This document shows, piece after piece, positions 55,199-62,389 of a stretch of DNA of 64,000 nucleotides. This DNA is from Clostridia bacterium (GTDB lineage: Bacteria; Bacillota; Clostridia; Lachnospirales; Anaerotignaceae). The stretch's first letter is position 1. Every line of letters starts with the position of its first letter. The stretch covers positions 1 to 64,000 of the forward strand of contig RZZU01000006.1 of NCBI GenBank assembly GCA_009929735.1, written 5' to 3'. The translations under genes and the position numbers were made by a program. The notes below the pieces were generated by a model. It did no database searches, was not told where the DNA came from, and saw only the letters and a program-made list of their open reading frames with translations.

Positions 55199-55678
55199 AT
55201 GTGGTTAATACCTGCAATAGCAGCAGTCATTTTGATAGGATTGGATCAGGCAACAAAGTATTTGGCATTGGTAAATCTCAAACCCATAGGCTCAATGGTT
55301 TTGGCAAATGGATTTTTGGATTTAACTTTTGTGGAAAACAGAGGGGTTGCCTTTGGTATGTTTTCAGGACAGCGGTGGTTTATTCTGCTGCTGACAGGGG
55401 TCATTACTGTTGTTTTGCTGTATTATTTCGCAAAATTACCCAAAACAAATGAGTACAAATTTGTTCGTATGTCGATGGTGCTTATTTTCGCAGGCGCAAT
55501 CGGGAATATGATTGACCGAATTTTCCGTGGATACGTGGTGGATTTTTTTGAATTTGCTTTTATTGATTTTCCTGTATTTAATGTGGCGGATATTTATGTA
55601 GTGATTGGCGTTTTTGTATTGGCATTTTTGATTTTGTTTGTGATCAAGGATCCAGAAGAAAAAAAGAAGGATGAATGA
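55199..55678 (+). CDS. lspA: lipoprotein signal peptidase LspA
   Basis: 159 residues, four membrane helices. The two catalytic aspartates are in GAIGNMIDRIFRGYVVDFFE and FNVADIYVVIG. It removes signal peptides from prolipoproteins. Its stop overlaps the next reading frame. Confidence 0.97.
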   Translation: MWLIPAIAAVILIGLDQATKYLALVNLKPIGSMVLANGFLDLTFVENRGVAFGMFSGQRWFILLLTGVITVVLLYYFAKLPKTNEYKFVRMSMVLIFAGAIGNMIDRIFRGYVVDFFEFAFIDFPVFNVADIYVVIGVFVLAFLILFVIKDPEEKKKDE

Positions 55679-55679
55679 T

Positions 55680-56594
55680 ATGGAGTATTTTACTTTTGGA
55701 GCAGAACGGGAAGATGTCGGCTGTCGTATCGATGTTTTTATCGCTGAAAACATGGAAATCATTTCTAGAAGCGGTGTGCAAAGGCTGATCGAAGAGGGTC
55801 ATGTTCGTCTGAACGGTGCCGCAGTAAAGGCGAATTATAAGTTACGGGAGAAGGACGTTATTGATGTTGAGATTCCTGAGGCAAAGACCGTAGAAATTTT
55901 ACCGGAAAATATTCCGCTAAATATTTTGTATGAAGACAAGGATGTGATTGTTGTAAATAAACCGCAGGGCATGGTGGTTCATCCTGCGCCGGGGCATACC
56001 ACTGGTACGCTTGTGAACGCCCTTTTATACCATTGCGGCGATGAGCTTTCGGGTATCAATGGCGAAAAGCGTCCTGGTATTGTGCACCGTATTGATAAGG
56101 ATACCTCAGGGGTTTTGATGATTGCAAAAAACGATACTGCACATCAATCTCTTGCAGAACAGCTTTCGGAGCATAGCATTACAAGAAAATATAATGCCAT
56201 TGTTTTTAATGGCTTTCAAGAGGATGAAGGTACCGTGGATCAACCCATTGGCAGAAACCCCTTGGATAGAAAAAAAATGGCGATTACGCAAAAACACAGC
56301 CGCAAAGCCGTGACACATTACAGAGTAATCGAACGCATGGGTAATTTTACGCTTATCGAAGCACAGCTGGAAACTGGAAGAACCCACCAAATTCGTGTGC
56401 ATCTGACGTTTATTGGACATCCCCTTTTGGGAGATATGGTATACGGTCCCAAAAAACAGCCGTTTCAATTGGATGGACAAGCCCTGCACGCAAGGGTTTT
56501 GGGGTTTGTGCACCCGACAACTGGGCAGTACATGGAATTTGAGGCACCGTTGCCGGAGAGCTTTGAAAAGTTACTTTTGCGCATAAAAGGTTAG
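55680..56594 (+). CDS. rluD: RluD-family rRNA pseudouridine synthase
   Basis: 304 residues from the ATG at 55680 (an upstream in-frame ATG at 55671 is possible). An S4 domain (RSGVQRLIEEGHVRLNG) is followed by the catalytic domain with HRIDKDTSGVLMIAK, where the aspartate is catalytic. In Bacillus this gene (ylyB) lies between lspA and the pyr operon, matching the order seen here. Confidence 0.94.
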   Translation: MEYFTFGAEREDVGCRIDVFIAENMEIISRSGVQRLIEEGHVRLNGAAVKANYKLREKDVIDVEIPEAKTVEILPENIPLNILYEDKDVIVVNKPQGMVVHPAPGHTTGTLVNALLYHCGDELSGINGEKRPGIVHRIDKDTSGVLMIAKNDTAHQSLAEQLSEHSITRKYNAIVFNGFQEDEGTVDQPIGRNPLDRKKMAITQKHSRKAVTHYRVIERMGNFTLIEAQLETGRTHQIRVHLTFIGHPLLGDMVYGPKKQPFQLDGQALHARVLGFVHPTTGQYMEFEAPLPESFEKLLLRIKG

Positions 56595-56606
56595 GAGGGT
56601 CAGGAA

Positions 56607-57536
56607 ATGCCGCTGATGAAGAAGGATTTTTTCGGTCTGAAGGACCTGTCTGCGGACGATATTCGATACGTTCTTGGTACTGCAGAAACCATGAAATATA
56701 TTTTAAGCCAGAAAAACAAAACGTCCCCTCATTTGCGGGGAAAATCCGTTATTATATTGTTTTATGAGCCCAGTGCAAGGGCGAAGCTTTCTTATGAATT
56801 GGCGGCAAGGCATTTAAGTGCCAGCGTTGTTGATATGACTAGCTCTATTCAAAACAGGGAGTTCGACAGCCTTTTGGATATGGGACAGTTGGTAGACCAG
56901 ATGGGGGCGGATTTTATTATTTTACGCCATCCGATGGCTGGGGCACCTCAGCTTCTCTCAAGTGCGGTGGAAGCGTCTGTAATCAATGCAGGGGATGGCT
57001 TCAATGAAAACCCTGGACAATCCTTGCTGGATTTGATGACCATTAAGGAGCGAAAAGGCGGGTTTGAAGGTCTTAAGGTTGCCATAATTGGAGATTTGAT
57101 TCATAGCCGTGTGTCCAAAAGCAATATTTGGGCGTTGACAAAGCTGGGGGCGGAGGTTCGGGTATCAGGTCCGCCTACCTTAATTTCGCCCGAAATAGAA
57201 AAGTTTGGTGTAGATGTTTATTATGATGCCCGAGAGGCTGTGAATAATGCCGACGTTATTTTAACCACAAGAATGCACAAGGATAGTCAAAACACCATGG
57301 TTTTGCCATCCTTGGATGAATATAAGAGATTTTTCCGCATTGACGAGGCTTTACTGCGGTATGCCAAAAAGGATGCGATTGTCATGCATCCAGGACCGAT
57401 TCGCCGTGGTATTGAAATTTCCTCTGGGGTAATCAATGGGCCGCAATGTATCATAAATGACCAAATTGCCAATAGTGTTGCTGTCAGAATGGCAATTTAC
57501 TATATCTTGACGCAAATGGGAGGTGCATTTCGATGA
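56607..57536 (+). CDS. PyrB-like aspartate carbamoyltransferase homologue with altered active site
   Basis: 309 residues, overall a full-length ATCase fold (INAGDG, GDLIHSRVSKSN, MHPGPIRRGIEIS). Key residues differ: the carbamoyl-phosphate loop STRTR reads SARAK (56-60), the 80s-loop lysine is Asn83 (SIQN), HPTQ reads NPGQ (135-138), and the RxQ pair reads RMH. Arginines 58, 107 and 168 are kept. By known ATCase chemistry this should be a poor or inactive carbamoyltransferase, or act on another substrate. It overlaps the pyrC-like gene by four bases. No pyrR, pyrI or other pyr gene is adjacent. Confidence 0.85.
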   Translation: MPLMKKDFFGLKDLSADDIRYVLGTAETMKYILSQKNKTSPHLRGKSVIILFYEPSARAKLSYELAARHLSASVVDMTSSIQNREFDSLLDMGQLVDQMGADFIILRHPMAGAPQLLSSAVEASVINAGDGFNENPGQSLLDLMTIKERKGGFEGLKVAIIGDLIHSRVSKSNIWALTKLGAEVRVSGPPTLISPEIEKFGVDVYYDAREAVNNADVILTTRMHKDSQNTMVLPSLDEYKRFFRIDEALLRYAKKDAIVMHPGPIRRGIEISSGVINGPQCIINDQIANSVAVRMAIYYILTQMGGAFR

Positions 57537-58804
57537 AAACATTGCTGAAAAACTGCCATGTGGTATCTCCAGGTTTTCAAGAAGAGGAATTATACGATAT
57601 TTATGTGGTAAATGGTATGATTGAAGAAATCGGAAAGAATTTAGAGGTTGAAGCTGGCAAAACAATGGATATTGGCGGAAATACGGTTTTGCCGGGCTTA
57701 ATTGATATGCACTGCAATATTTGCGACCCTGGGTTTGAGTATTTAGAAAATATAGAAACGGTTTCCCGCAGTGCCGCAAGGGGCGGGTTTACAACAATCA
57801 CCTGCGAGCCGAATACAAACCCTGTCATAGACAACAAAACCGTTGTGGAATACATTGTTTCAAAATCGAAGAACCATGCTTTGGTTAATATACATCCCTA
57901 TGGGAGTATGTCTATTGGGTGCAAAGGGCAGAAAATGGCAGAAATCGGCGAGATGTTTAACGCTGGAATTGTAGGGGTTTCCGACGGGGATGAATTTACT
58001 GATGAGGCATCTTTTTTGCGAAATGTCATGCTGTATGTGAAAATGTTTGATATGCCTGTCATTACCCATTGTGAGGATAGAGGTTTATCGGGCAGCGGCG
58101 TAATGAATACAGGGTTTACCGCCTCCCGCCTAGGCTTGGCGGGTATGCCCCGAGAGGCGGAAGAGGTCATGGTTGCCAGAAATATTATTTTGGCGGAAAA
58201 TACAGGCGCAAGGCTTCATATTGCCCATGTCAGCACAAAAGGCTCAGTCCAATTAATTCGTGAGGCAAAAAAAAGAGGTGCCAAGGTTACAGGGGAAACT
58301 TGTCCGCATTATTTTCTTCTGACGGAGGAAACGGTGGAGAATTATAACACTTTTGCCAAGGTAAATCCGCCTTTGCGTACCAAAGAGGATGTGGAGGCAA
58401 TTATAAAAGGCATCGGGGATGGCAGTATTGATGTCATTGCCTCAGGGCACAGCCCCTCCAATGAGGGGGACAAAAACATGGTATTTACCAATGCCGTTTA
58501 TGGTATTTCTTCTTTGGAAACGGCATTTTCCTTAAGCTACACAGGCTTGGTCAAATCGAAGCTGATTTCGCTTTCAAAATTGGTTGCGCTGATGAGCACA
58601 ATGCCGGCGGAAATATTAAAGCTTGAGAATAAAGGGCGCATTGCCAAGGGGATGGATGCGGATTTGATTGTGGTGGATTTACGACAGGGCTACCGTATTG
58701 ATCCCAAGCATTTTGCCTCAAAAGCAAAGTTTTCACCCTTTGCGGATTGGGAAGTGCAAGGCAGAGTGATTTATACCATGGTGGGCGGAAAACTAATCAT
58801 GTGA
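57533..58804 (+). CDS. PyrC-like dihydroorotase homologue with lost metal ligands
   Basis: 423 residues, type I dihydroorotase fold (GLIDMH, GGFTTI, AHVSTKGSV, NPPLRTKED, GISSLETAF). The HxH metal motif and its arginine, normally HVHxREPG, read HCNICDPG (60-67). The catalytic aspartate and substrate histidine, normally TDHAPH, read SGHSPS (304-309). His179 and His232 remain. It should not hydrolyse dihydroorotate by the standard mechanism and looks like a pseudo-dihydroorotase. Such inactive homologues can scaffold ATCase in other bacteria. Translationally coupled to the PyrB-like gene. Confidence 0.86.
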   Translation: MKTLLKNCHVVSPGFQEEELYDIYVVNGMIEEIGKNLEVEAGKTMDIGGNTVLPGLIDMHCNICDPGFEYLENIETVSRSAARGGFTTITCEPNTNPVIDNKTVVEYIVSKSKNHALVNIHPYGSMSIGCKGQKMAEIGEMFNAGIVGVSDGDEFTDEASFLRNVMLYVKMFDMPVITHCEDRGLSGSGVMNTGFTASRLGLAGMPREAEEVMVARNIILAENTGARLHIAHVSTKGSVQLIREAKKRGAKVTGETCPHYFLLTEETVENYNTFAKVNPPLRTKEDVEAIIKGIGDGSIDVIASGHSPSNEGDKNMVFTNAVYGISSLETAFSLSYTGLVKSKLISLSKLVALMSTMPAEILKLENKGRIAKGMDADLIVVDLRQGYRIDPKHFASKAKFSPFADWEVQGRVIYTMVGGKLIM

Positions 58805-58825
58805 TCGTAATAAAGAGGTGCAGTG

Positions 58826-61800
58826 ATGTATTTAAAACGATTGGATTTGCAGGGTTTTAAGTCCTTTCCCGAAAAAGTAAAATTAGAGTTTAACCAAGGC
58901 ATGACTGCGGTAGTTGGCCCGAATGGGAGCGGAAAAAGCAATGTTTCCGATGCGGTTCGTTGGGTTTTGGGGGAGCAAAGAGCGAAAAGCCTCCGTGGGG
59001 ATAAAATGGAGGATGTTATTTTTGCGGGAACAGAAAACAGAAAGCCCTTGGGCTTTGCAGAAGTGTCTATTACCATCGATAACCAAGACCAAAAGCTGCC
59101 CTTGGCATACACAGAGGTGCAGGTAACACGCAGAGTATTCCGCTCGGGCGAAAGCGAATATCGTATGAACGGTACGGCTTGCCGCTTAAAGGATATTCAG
59201 GAGCTTTTTATGGATACAGGCGTTGGTCGGGAAGGCTATTCCATCATCGGACAGGGCAGAATTGACGAAATATTAAGTGCAAAGGGCGAGGAACGTCGAC
59301 GGATTTTTGAAGAAGCGGCAGGTATTGTAAAATACAAAACCCGGCGGAATGAGGCGGCAGGCAAGCTGGAGAAAGAACAGCAGAACTTGCTGCGTGTGGA
59401 CGATATTATCGGGGAGCTTGAGGTTCAGCTTGAGCCTTTAGAACAGCAAAGCGAAAAAGCAAAACAATATTTAACTTTGAAGGAAGAATTAAAACAAGCT
59501 GAGGTTGTATCATTTTGTACGGAATTAGACCGTATGGAGCAAGATCAGACAAAGCTTTTAAAGGATAAGGCGATAGCTGAGGAACAATTGCAGCAGCAGC
59601 TGTTTCAAGCGCAAAAAGATAAGGTAACCACGCAGCAGCAAAAAATAAAATCAGAAGAATTGGATGCGCTTTTGCAGCAGTTAAACCAAGGAATTACCGA
59701 GCTTCGGGCGGAAAAAGAGCGGAATGAGGGCGAAATCCGTCTGACGGAGGAGCAGAAGCAAAATGATGCGGCAAATTTTGAAAGAATTCAACGGGAAATT
59801 TTGCAAAAGCAGGAGCAAAAGGCGGAAAATGATAAGCAGCTTGAGCTATGCAACAGCCGCATGACTGCGTTGCGTATGGAAATGGAGCTCCGTCAGGACA
59901 AGCTTTCCAAGCTGGAGCAGGAGAACAGAACTTTAAATTCGGCTTTACACCATGATGAAACACAGGCTGAAAGCTTTAAGGACGAAATATTTGAGCAAAT
60001 TAAAATCGGAACTGAGGCGAAGGGTGAAATTGCCAAGCGTGAAGCTTTACAAGAGCAATTTATGAGCCGTATGCAACAGCTGCAATCGGAGAAAACGCAT
60101 TTGGAGAGCAGACTGCATCAGCTTGAAGTACATACACAGGTTTTGGATAAGCAGGAAGCTGAAATGAGAGAGAATATCTCTTTTATGGAAAAAGAACTGC
60201 TTGCTTTGGAGCAAGATCGGGTTGAAGCTCAAAAAGAAAAAGATGGGGTGCAGTTCAATCTTTCCAAAGAGGAAAAAGGACTTTTTGAAATCCAATCCAG
60301 ATTTTCAGTTTTAAAAGAGATGGAAAAGGAAAACGAAGGCTTTTTCCAGAGTGTTAAGAGTCTTTTAAATTTGCCCGATAAAGAGCAAAGGGGAATTTGT
60401 GGTGCAGTTGGGCAGTTATTAAAGGTGGACGAGGCTTATGAGGTTGCCATAGAGGCGGCTTTGGGTGCGGCATTGCAAAATGTTGTTACGAAAACCGAGG
60501 AGGATGCCAGAGAGGCAATTGGTTATTTAAAGGCAAATAATTTGGGACGAGCGACCTTCTTACCCATTTCTGCCATCAAGGGGCGCACCTTTGAGGGCAG
60601 ACCGCCTATATTAGATGAGGCTGGGGTGATTGGCACTGCCCATGAACTGGTTGCGCATGAGGGGATATATCGGCAGGTTGTGGAGAGCCTGTTGGGACGC
60701 ACGATCATCGTGGATCATTTGGAGCAAGGCGTAATCTTGGCAAAAAAATACAAGCATCAGTATAAAATGGTAACCCTAGACGGAGATATTTTAAACCCCG
60801 GCGGTGCCATGACGGGTGGCTCTAAGCAGAAAAAAGCTGCGCATATTTTTAGTCGCAGCAGGGAAATACATTCTTTGCAGGAAAAAATTGATAGCGCAAG
60901 CAGTGTCGTTGCAGAGCTGCATGAAAAGCTTCTTCTTTGCCAAGAGGACATGGAGGAGGTCGAGCAGGTAATTGCAGAAAGAAGATTAGAGCTGCAAAAG
61001 CTGACCGTAACGCTAAGTGGCAGTCATGGCGAGAAGGAAAAAACGAACGGTGATTCCAAAGAAAATCAGGAGCGTTTGAGCCTTGTTCTTCTGGAGGAAA
61101 GTCAGCTGAACGAGCAGCTTTTACGCACTGAAAAGGATATTCAGGAAAATAAAGAGAGGCTGTCCCTTTCTCAAAATAAAATGGAGGAAGTGAACGCAGA
61201 GCTGTTGAAGTTCCAAGACTGCTTGTCTGATGACAAGGAAAAGCGAGATGTATTGGCAGAGGAAATTACTTCCTTAAAAATTGGGATATCCAATAACGGT
61301 CAAAACATTTCCAATATCGAGGATACCGTTTTGCGAATCAAGTCCGAAAATCATGCGCTGTTGCAGCAAATAAAAGAGGATGAAGGGATAATTACGCGCT
61401 TAATGCAAAGAGGCGAAGAAAAGGAAAAGCTGAAAGCAAAATTGCGTAGAGAATCCGATACCATGGATGAAAAAACATTGGTGTTGCAAGAAGCGTTAGG
61501 TAAAGCCGTAGAAGAAAAAAGCAAAATCTCCCAAGAAGCCGAGCGCATGGAGCAAAGAGCGGCGGAACAGAGGGAGTCAGCACAGCAGATGGAAAAAGAG
61601 CTGTTCCGTATTGAAACAAAAAGAGAGAAAATTGAGGAAGAAAAAATTCGCATTACCGCCCAAATGTGGGAAGAATATGAAATGACCCATCGTATGGCGC
61701 AGGAGTATGCCGCAAACAGGCAGAACGGTTTCATAAGCCGTCCGATGAAGGAAATCAGGGCGGAAATCCGTGCTTTGGGCGATGTAAATGTGGGAGCCAT

Positions 61801-62389
61801 TGAGCAATTTAAAGAGGTTAAGGAACGATACAGCTTTTTAACGCAGCAAAGAGGGGATATTTTAGAAGCGGAGGAGAAGCTTCAGGCTATTATTGATGAA
61901 CTTTCCGTTTTAATGGAAAAGCAGTTCAGAGAGCAATTTCAGATGATTTCGGAGAGTTTTGGCCGTGTGTTTCAAGAAATGTTCGGCGGTGGCAAGGCAT
62001 ATTTAAAGCTGCTTGATACGGAACACGTGCTGGAATCTCCTATTGAGATCGTTGCACAGCCACCGGGAAAAAATTTGCAGAATATGCAGCTGCTCTCCGG
62101 CGGCGAAAGGGCTTTGACTGCAATTGCCATTCTATTCTCCATTTTGCATATGAAGCCATCACCGTTTTGTATATTGGACGAAATAGAAGCGGCATTGGAT
62201 GATGCGAATGTTAGTAAATTTGCGCAGTATTTAAAGAAATTTTCAGAACATACGCAGTTTATCGTGATAACCCATAGAAAAGGGACGATGGAGTATGCCG
62301 ACGTTCTGTATGGGGTGACCATGCAGGAAAAAGGCATATCAAAGCTGATTTCTGTTGACTTTTCCCAACAAGAAAAGGATGCAATGTAA
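58826..62389 (+). CDS. smc: chromosome segregation SMC protein
   Basis: 1,187 residues from the ATG after AGAGGTG. Walker A GPNGSGKSN near residue 32, two long coiled coils around a hinge (about residues 500-660, GAVGQLLKVDEAYEVAIEAA; LDGDILNPGGAMTGGS), the ABC signature LLSGGERALTAIA and Walker B FCILDEIEAALDD. It organises and separates chromosomes with ScpAB. Confidence 0.98.
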   Translation: MYLKRLDLQGFKSFPEKVKLEFNQGMTAVVGPNGSGKSNVSDAVRWVLGEQRAKSLRGDKMEDVIFAGTENRKPLGFAEVSITIDNQDQKLPLAYTEVQVTRRVFRSGESEYRMNGTACRLKDIQELFMDTGVGREGYSIIGQGRIDEILSAKGEERRRIFEEAAGIVKYKTRRNEAAGKLEKEQQNLLRVDDIIGELEVQLEPLEQQSEKAKQYLTLKEELKQAEVVSFCTELDRMEQDQTKLLKDKAIAEEQLQQQLFQAQKDKVTTQQQKIKSEELDALLQQLNQGITELRAEKERNEGEIRLTEEQKQNDAANFERIQREILQKQEQKAENDKQLELCNSRMTALRMEMELRQDKLSKLEQENRTLNSALHHDETQAESFKDEIFEQIKIGTEAKGEIAKREALQEQFMSRMQQLQSEKTHLESRLHQLEVHTQVLDKQEAEMRENISFMEKELLALEQDRVEAQKEKDGVQFNLSKEEKGLFEIQSRFSVLKEMEKENEGFFQSVKSLLNLPDKEQRGICGAVGQLLKVDEAYEVAIEAALGAALQNVVTKTEEDAREAIGYLKANNLGRATFLPISAIKGRTFEGRPPILDEAGVIGTAHELVAHEGIYRQVVESLLGRTIIVDHLEQGVILAKKYKHQYKMVTLDGDILNPGGAMTGGSKQKKAAHIFSRSREIHSLQEKIDSASSVVAELHEKLLLCQEDMEEVEQVIAERRLELQKLTVTLSGSHGEKEKTNGDSKENQERLSLVLLEESQLNEQLLRTEKDIQENKERLSLSQNKMEEVNAELLKFQDCLSDDKEKRDVLAEEITSLKIGISNNGQNISNIEDTVLRIKSENHALLQQIKEDEGIITRLMQRGEEKEKLKAKLRRESDTMDEKTLVLQEALGKAVEEKSKISQEAERMEQRAAEQRESAQQMEKELFRIETKREKIEEEKIRITAQMWEEYEMTHRMAQEYAANRQNGFISRPMKEIRAEIRALGDVNVGAIEQFKEVKERYSFLTQQRGDILEAEEKLQAIIDELSVLMEKQFREQFQMISESFGRVFQEMFGGGKAYLKLLDTEHVLESPIEIVAQPPGKNLQNMQLLSGGERALTAIAILFSILHMKPSPFCILDEIEAALDDANVSKFAQYLKKFSEHTQFIVITHRKGTMEYADVLYGVTMQEKGISKLISVDFSQQEKDAM

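What the first reader, a model, noticed from the sequence alone, without database searches (positions are those of the whole stretch)
56607..58804. PyrB-PyrC pair with both active sites dismantled, at the ancestral pyr locus
In the PyrB-like protein STRTR has become SARAK, the 80s-loop Lys is Asn, HPTQ is NPGQ. In the PyrC-like protein HxH is HCN, the REP arginine is Cys, and the TDHAPH aspartate is Gly. The folds are otherwise intact and the genes stay coupled in the lspA-rluD-...-smc order, where Bacillus-type genomes place pyr genes; pyrR, pyrP, carAB and the rest are absent. Purifying selection on two linked pseudo-enzymes would mean a new, probably non-pyrimidine or regulatory role, perhaps tied to the division and segregation genes around them.
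Basis: partly seen in the sequence, partly recalled or inferred. Interest (0 to 1): 0.8.

Follow-up and report, generated by a model that had tools for sequence, protein, structure and literature searches.

The report
Conserved dead pyrimidine-enzyme pair
Many gut and anaerobic bacteria of the order Lachnospirales carry a second, catalytically disabled copy of two neighbouring pyrimidine-synthesis enzymes that evolution has nevertheless preserved as strictly as the working copies, so the pair almost certainly has a new, still unknown job.

Summary
The PyrB-like (psB, 56607-57536) and PyrC-like (psC, 57533-58804) proteins have lost the residues that define their enzymes, and the same genome has a complete canonical operon elsewhere (pyrC-carB-pyrK-pyrD-pyrF-pyrE-pyrB-pyrI).
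They are not decaying: dN/dS is about 0.03 (psB) and 0.055 (psC), as low as or lower than for the working pyrB and pyrC of the same genomes.
The pair is one ancient clade, found in about 100 of 392 Lachnospirales genomes and 10 of 25 sampled families.
It sits after lspA-rluD. Outgroups have the active lspA-rluD-pyrR-pyrP-pyrB-pyrC-pyrF-car operon with PyrR elements there; early-branching lineages keep pyrR-pyrP-psB-psC. So the pair descends in situ from pyrB-pyrC.
psC has abandoned its metal site. psB lost the catalytic residues (H134 in 75/75) but keeps R54, R105, R167 and R/K229, the residues by which plant ATCase also binds UMP.
Most likely mechanism (inferred): a catalytically dead psB-psC complex whose psB pocket senses an anionic metabolite.
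The suggested tie to division/segregation genes is not supported: smc adjacency is confined to one family.

The parts
55199..55678 (+). lspA (signal peptidase II); upstream neighbour conserved with the pair in most of the order
55671..56594 (+). rluD (pseudouridine synthase); upstream neighbour conserved with the pair in most of the order
56593..56599 (+). Shine-Dalgarno AGGAGGG of psB
56607..57536 (+). psB: catalytically disabled PyrB/ATCase homologue, 309 aa (S-A-R-A-K, N-P-G-Q, no 80s-loop Lys; R54, R105, Q137, R167, R229 equivalents kept)
   Evidence: AlphaFold model pLDDT 87.7, closest to PALA-bound B. subtilis ATCase Z 37.0
57518..57525 (+). Shine-Dalgarno GGGAGGTG of psC inside the end of psB (translational coupling, ATGA overlap)
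57533..58804 (+). psC: catalytically disabled PyrC/type I dihydroorotase homologue, 423 aa (HCN, bridging Asp to Gly, SGHSPS)
   Evidence: model pLDDT 88.4, closest to Aquifex DHOase in the DHO-ATC complex Z 56.3, tied with Bacillus DHOase
58823..62389 (+). smc; adjacent only in the window's own family (Anaerotignum group), so not considered part of the system

Best explanation
psB-psC is an ancient, vertically inherited pair of pseudoenzymes. SHOWN (by sequence): the ancestor of much of the Lachnospirales had the active operon lspA-rluD-pyrR-pyrP-pyrB-pyrC-pyrF-car. Active pyr genes are now found elsewhere in the genome (a sister clade of the same PyrB/PyrC type, or an E. coli-type pyrBI operon), and the pyrB-pyrC left at the old locus lost catalysis once while staying coupled, co-inherited and under strong purifying selection. 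INFERRED: the two proteins still assemble with each other, as ATCase and DHOase do in the Aquifex and Pseudomonas dodecamers. psC acts as an inert scaffold, since its metal site drifts freely. psB trimers still close on an anionic ligand held by R54, R105, R167 and R/K229, but cannot transfer a carbamoyl group because H134, T55 and K84 are gone. The complex therefore works as a binding or sensing device rather than an enzyme. The ligand is probably linked to pyrimidine metabolism: UMP, which plant ATCase binds in its active site through the same four arginines, or a dicarboxylate such as aspartate or carbamoyl-aspartate. The output (which protein or process it controls) is not known.
For: Second canonical pathway in the same genome; 14 of the 18 pair-carrying genomes tested have a separate canonical ATCase over the model cut-off. 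Purifying selection: median omega psB 0.033, psC 0.055 against functional pyrB 0.047, pyrC 0.093, pyrE 0.037 in the same genomes, omega=1 rejected for every pair (smallest LRT 253 for the pseudo genes). One clade: psB 100/100 ultrafast bootstrap/SH-aLRT (careful tree, 49 rows) and psC SH-aLRT 99 (quick tree, 48 rows), with the catalytic columns removed. Retained pocket in 75 distinct psB: R54 74, R105 73, Q137 71, R167 75, R/K229 74; lost: H134 75/75, T55 69/75, K84 71/75; psC D151 70/70 Gly, metal His at about 55-60%. In situ origin and intermediates: outgroup operons with PyrR elements, pyrR-pyrP-psB-psC and sub-threshold PyrR sites of 48-49 bits. Coupling: psC follows psB directly in 59 of 61 loci, the two exceptions being a broken psC and one frameshifted assembly. 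Folds intact. Plant ATCase binds UMP through R136, R187, R248, R310, i.e. R54, R105, R167, R229 (PMC7878868; the E. coli numbering is my own mapping). D100 is fixed in psB (75/75) but variable in canonical relatives; its trimer-interface role is recalled from memory.
Against: No biochemical data: loss of activity, complex formation and ligand binding are inferred. The retained arginines could be structural, or kept for a different reaction. No conserved partner or output gene was found outside the lspA-rluD context. The pair is dispensable: many lineages lost both genes cleanly. One carrier (L250, genome G067) lost the pocket residues although its pathway genes (pyrF and an ATCase over the cut-off) are present, so the pocket is not essential everywhere. 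The Rfam PyrR sites in front of pair-containing operons are below the gathering score.
Confidence: 0.45

Rival explanations
1. psB-psC is a regulatory or dominant-negative partner of the active ATCase/DHOase: it mixes with the canonical subunits or competes for them and tunes de novo flux.
For: psB and psC descend from a kind of PyrB/PyrC whose relatives elsewhere form ATCase-DHOase dodecamers, and inactive DHO is required for Pseudomonas ATCase activity (PMC7053772). Pair-carrying genomes nearly always keep the pathway.
Against: The pair is kept both in genomes whose active ATCase is a close homologue and in genomes where it is the distant E. coli-type PyrBI (about 32% identity to psB); at genus level in the window's family 6 of 9 PyrBI genera and 3 of 8 close-homologue genera carry it, Fisher p 0.35. 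No co-conserved partner is known.
Confidence: 0.2
2. psB is still an enzyme with a changed reaction (for example transfer to another acceptor, or a phosphatase or lyase), the N/D134 and G/S136 being a new specificity, with psC as scaffold.
For: Strong constraint on psB. R54, R105, Q137, R167 and R/K229 are kept. Another carbamoyltransferase paralogue misannotated as ATCase proved to be a ureidoglycine carbamoyltransferase (PMC4016543).
Against: Every known carbamoyltransferase family, including the published 'pseudo-ATCases', keeps SxRT and HPxQ (PMC4016543 Table 1, PMC4581275); psB keeps neither. No metabolic genes are consistently linked.
Confidence: 0.18
3. The pair works with its neighbours (signal peptidase, ribosome modification, chromosome segregation) as a moonlighting structural protein.
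For: Tight operon lspA-rluD-psB-psC-smc in the window and its family.
Against: smc adjacency is confined to one family; some lineages have the pair after an unrelated gene rather than after lspA-rluD (L151, L155, L157); lspA-rluD is simply the ancestral place of the pyr operon.
Confidence: 0.07
4. Relics decaying towards loss.
For: Repeated clean losses; one lineage without OMP decarboxylase or canonical ATCase has a psC broken by an insert.
Against: omega 0.03-0.06, open frames nearly throughout, single deep clade across 10 families.
Confidence: 0.02
5. They are after all the working ATCase and DHOase.
For: NCBIfam TIGR00670 and TIGR00857 score them over the cut-off (251.2 vs 236.95; 389.4 vs 279.05).
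Against: All six DHOase metal ligands are never present together and the ATCase motifs are broken in every member; canonical copies are present.
Confidence: 0.03

Closest known systems
Class A2 ATCase of Pseudomonas (active PyrB + inactive pseudo-DHOase PyrC')
   Same: Linked pyrB-pyrC' genes, DHOase fold without activity, probably a scaffold
   Different: There the ATCase subunit is active and the pseudo-DHO serves it; here the ATCase subunit is also disabled and the cell has another pathway
Class A1 ATCase-DHOase complex (Aquifex aeolicus; 3d6n, 4bjh)
   Same: psC models best on the ATC-bound Aquifex DHOase (Z 56.3, tied with Bacillus DHOase 55.7); psB on ATCase
   Different: Both Aquifex subunits are active
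Published 'pseudo-ATCases' (PMC4016543), e.g. ureidoglycine carbamoyltransferase
   Same: PyrB paralogues annotated as ATCase in genomes with a genuine one
   Different: They keep STRT and HPTQ and lose the RxQ aspartate site; psB is the mirror image: it loses the carbamoyl-phosphate motifs and keeps the aspartate-site arginines
CRMP/DPYSL proteins and fungal Ura2 pseudo-DHOase
   Same: Amidohydrolase folds kept without the catalytic metal site
   Different: Eukaryotic, not paired with a dead transcarbamylase
Plant ATCase with UMP in the active site (PMC7878868)
   Same: The UMP contacts R136, R187, R248, R310 correspond to the arginines kept in psB
   Different: Plant ATCase is an active enzyme; psB's 80s (CP) loop is hypervariable and does not carry a conserved counterpart of the plant UMP loop

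Membership tests
Aspartate/other carbamoyltransferase (as an enzyme) | SxRT carbamoyl-phosphate motif | tested here: not met
   S-A-R-A in the window; T55 absent in 69 of 75 psB
Aspartate/other carbamoyltransferase (as an enzyme) | HPxQ motif | tested here: not met
   N/D/S in place of H in 75 of 75; all known families have H
Aspartate/other carbamoyltransferase (as an enzyme) | RxQxER aspartate loop and 80s-loop Lys84 | tested here: not met
   R/K229 kept in 74/75; Q231 26/75, R234 11/75, K84 4/75
Aspartate/other carbamoyltransferase (as an enzyme) | HxLP / HP[LG]P loop | tested here: met
   HPGP in the window; H265 75/75, P266 74/75, P268 48/75
Carbamoyltransferase fold family | Two-domain ATC/OTC fold and profile score | tested here: met
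   PF02729/PF00185 over cut-off; 3r7l Z 37.0, rmsd 1.9 over 288 residues
Carbamoyltransferase fold family | Catalytic homotrimer | not testable with these tools
   D100 fixed in 75/75; its trimer-interface role is recalled, no complex was modelled
Type I dihydroorotase (as an enzyme) | Metal ligands H59, H61, D151, H178, H231, D304 | tested here: not met
   0 of 70 psC have all six; D151 is Gly in 70/70
Type I dihydroorotase (as an enzyme) | Substrate residues R63, N93, H308 | tested here: not met
   R63 0/70, H308 2/70, N93 42/70
Type I dihydroorotase fold family | Amidohydrolase barrel with DHOase profile | tested here: met
   TIGR00857 389.4 bits vs 279.05; 4bjh Z 56.3
Class A2 ATCase complex | Inactive DHOase subunit encoded next to pyrB | tested here: met
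   by sequence
Class A2 ATCase complex | Active ATCase subunit | tested here: not met
   by motif only; activity itself not testable here
Class A2 ATCase complex | Dodecameric assembly | not testable with these tools
   only single chains could be modelled
'Pseudo-ATCase' subgroups 1-3 (PMC4016543) | STRT and HPTQ kept, RxQ lost | tested here: not met
   STRT and HPTQ are lost in psB, R/K229 is kept

The most novel reading that the evidence does not exclude
An order-wide, catalytically dead ATCase-DHOase complex has become a pyrimidine-state sensor: psB binds UMP (or another pathway metabolite) in the old active site and the psB-psC complex relays this, originally in a PyrR-controlled operon with the uracil permease and later as a constitutive housekeeping device.
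Probability: 0.25. Interest if true: 0.85.

Novelty: new variant of a known kind. Interest (0 to 1): 0.7.

Why it matters
A complete two-enzyme module of central metabolism was kept for the age of a bacterial order after both enzymes apparently died. That makes a clean natural case for studying how metabolic complexes turn into non-enzymes, with the ancestral operon, intermediates and clean losses all preserved. NCBI's automatic models call these proteins ATCase and dihydroorotase, so pathway reconstructions of many gut Lachnospirales may place active enzymes at the wrong locus. Carriers include Anaerotignum species and Clostridium sp. ASF356 of the altered Schaedler flora, so the function can be tested in cultured strains.

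Tried and rejected
RNA elements: none in the window. PyrR sites in outgroup operons pass the gathering score; those in front of pair-containing operons are 48-49 bits, below it. Association of the pair with the type of active ATCase: none, Fisher p 0.35 over genera. Association with the presence of the de novo pathway: nearly all carriers have pyrF, but so do most non-carriers, so no correlation is claimed; the genome G089, without pyrF or canonical ATCase and with a broken psC, is a single case. Partner genes downstream of psC in deep lineages: no conserved one. Promoter and terminator scan in the region: at chance level. Two of the three pattern hits outside the family (G368, G165) are not PyrB relatives. 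Literature: no paper on an inactive PyrB-PyrC pair was found in the held library. ASF356 proteome papers gave nothing usable.

Full report
WHAT IS THERE. The window holds a tight transcription-unit-like row lspA-rluD-psB-psC-smc. psB (56607-57536, 309 aa) and psC (57533-58804, 423 aa) overlap by ATGA and each has its own Shine-Dalgarno. The nearest solved relatives are B. subtilis ATCase and B. anthracis DHOase. In addition the bridging Asp (D151, B. anthracis numbering) and H308 of psC are gone, and the RxQxER signature of psB is broken.

A SECOND, WORKING PATHWAY. The 2.8 Mb genome (99.9% complete) has a canonical operon on contig C10: pyrC (HVHLREPG, TDHAPH), carB, pyrK, pyrD, pyrF, pyrE, pyrB (STRTR, K84, HPTQ) and pyrI. 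It also has a further carbamoyltransferase on C54 that looks like argF. Over 18 carriers, 14 have a separate canonical ATCase above the NCBIfam cut-off. The others are two incomplete assemblies (G031, G081), one 94% MAG that does have pyrF (G043), and G089, which has neither pyrF nor a canonical ATCase.

NOT DECAY. For five Anaerotignum-group genomes, pairwise ML codon estimates give median omega 0.033 for psB and 0.055 for psC. In the same genomes functional pyrB, pyrC and pyrE give 0.047, 0.093 and 0.037. omega=1 is rejected for every pair, smallest LRT 253 for the pseudo genes. In a first run psB (median 0.028) was the most constrained gene of its neighbourhood, below rluD, lspA, smc, ylmH and divIVA. 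dS is about 1.0-1.3, so omega values are approximate, but the comparison with the working genes is like for like.

ONE ANCIENT CLADE. A scan of GTDB genome contigs returned 67 loci, among them Anaerotignum neopropionicum, A. lactatifermentans, Anaerotalea alkaliphila and Clostridium sp. ASF356. With the catalytic columns removed, 49-50 psB form one clade (SH-aLRT 100; 100/100 in the careful tree) and 48 psC form one clade (SH-aLRT 99). The nearest kin are canonical, motif-intact PyrB and PyrC of the same order. An order-wide search with a psB profile shows a clean score gap: 97 genomes at 450 bits or more, the best motif-checked canonical at 421. With two fragmentary copies and one divergent copy that makes about 100 of 392 genomes, in 10 of the 25 sampled families. 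The motif was checked directly in the 75 distinct psB and in 20 further loci, partly the same organisms, not in every genome of that list.

WHAT IS LOST AND WHAT IS KEPT (75 psB, 70 psC, against 36 and 35 canonical relatives that are nearly invariant at these sites). psB: H134 lost in 75/75 (N 60, D 14, S 1), T55 lost in 69, K84 in 71, Q231 in 49. Kept: S52 70, R54 74, R105 73, P135 75, Q137 71, R167 75, R or K229 74. psC: D151 is Gly in 70/70, D304 lost in 64, R63 in 70, H61 absent or rare, and the remaining metal His drift (H178 and H231 at 39/70). So psC has given up its active site, while psB keeps the anion-binding half of its pocket.

WHERE IT CAME FROM. Outgroup loci L147 and L162 have the full active operon lspA-rluD-pyrR-pyrP-pyrB-pyrC-pyrF followed by car genes, with Rfam PyrR elements above threshold. 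Early-branching carriers have lspA-rluD-pyrR-pyrP-psB-psC (L232, L234; the same order with the locus cut at one end in L276, L277, L280, L286), pyrR-psB-psC (L156, L278) or pyrP-psB-psC (L152). Three of these (L234, L276, L286) have PyrR sites of 48-49 bits, below the gathering score of 54. In the window's family the regulatory genes are gone and smc has moved up to psC. Genomes of that family that lost the pair read lspA-rluD-smc with nothing between, in 11 loci. The pair is thus a direct, in situ descendant of pyrB-pyrC, and the link to smc is late and local.

COUPLING. psC follows psB within 62 nt in 59 of 61 loci. The two exceptions are L158, where psC is broken by an insert, and L110, an assembly with frameshifts in several genes.

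STRUCTURE. AlphaFold models from homologues of the clade are confident (pLDDT 87.7 and 88.4) and match ATCase with PALA (3r7l, Z 37.0) and the Aquifex DHOase of the DHO-ATC complex (4bjh, Z 56.3, tied with Bacillus DHOase at 55.7). Folds are intact; this says nothing about activity.

MECHANISM. Steps shown by sequence: duplication or replacement of the active genes, single loss of the catalytic residues, strong constraint, coupled inheritance. Steps inferred: assembly of psB with psC by analogy with Aquifex and Pseudomonas (PMC7053772, PMC3880350), and ligand binding by the four arginines. psB keeps the arginines and loses K84 and Q231, which matter for the bisubstrate complex. This makes UMP a candidate, not a result. 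Dicarboxylates or phosphate are equally open.

COMPARISON. The three motifs said to define all carbamoyltransferases are SxRT, HPxQ and HxLP (PMC4581275); psB fails the first two. The published pseudo-ATCases keep both and lose RxQ (PMC4016543). Pseudomonas pairs an inactive DHO with an active ATCase. A pair with both halves dead was not found in the held literature; that library lacks most subscription journals.

VERDICT. The finding is real and stronger than first stated: an order-wide, ancient pair of conserved pseudoenzymes. The function is unknown experimentally; a non-catalytic ligand-binding complex is the best-supported reading.

Noticed in passing
L249:4991-6767 (same organism as L158; genome G089): In the one carrier lacking both OMP decarboxylase and a canonical ATCase among those tested, psC is interrupted by several hundred bp of unrelated sequence and psB has lost Q137 and R229. 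A possible natural link between the pair and de novo pyrimidine synthesis, but a single case.
   Followed up: partly
window 56607-58804: NCBIfam models TIGR00670 and TIGR00857 score psB and psC above their cut-offs, so automatic annotation will call them active enzymes.
   Followed up: yes
L006 and L044-L069: Genera of the window's family use either an E. coli-type PyrBI operon or a B. subtilis-type pyrB-pyrC-pyrF operon as the working ATCase, a patchy replacement of the pathway type within one family.
   Followed up: partly
L151, L154, L155, L157: In one deep subgroup the pair has left lspA-rluD and follows a gene whose start looks like DNA topoisomerase III (read by eye, not searched).
   Followed up: no
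L110: Assembly with frameshifts in ylmH, psC, smc and ftsY at once, probably sequencing errors.
   Followed up: no
L250:4148-5047: Very divergent psB (38% to a canonical PyrB) with the pocket residues replaced (R105T, H134S, Q137R) in a genome that still has the pathway.
   Followed up: partly
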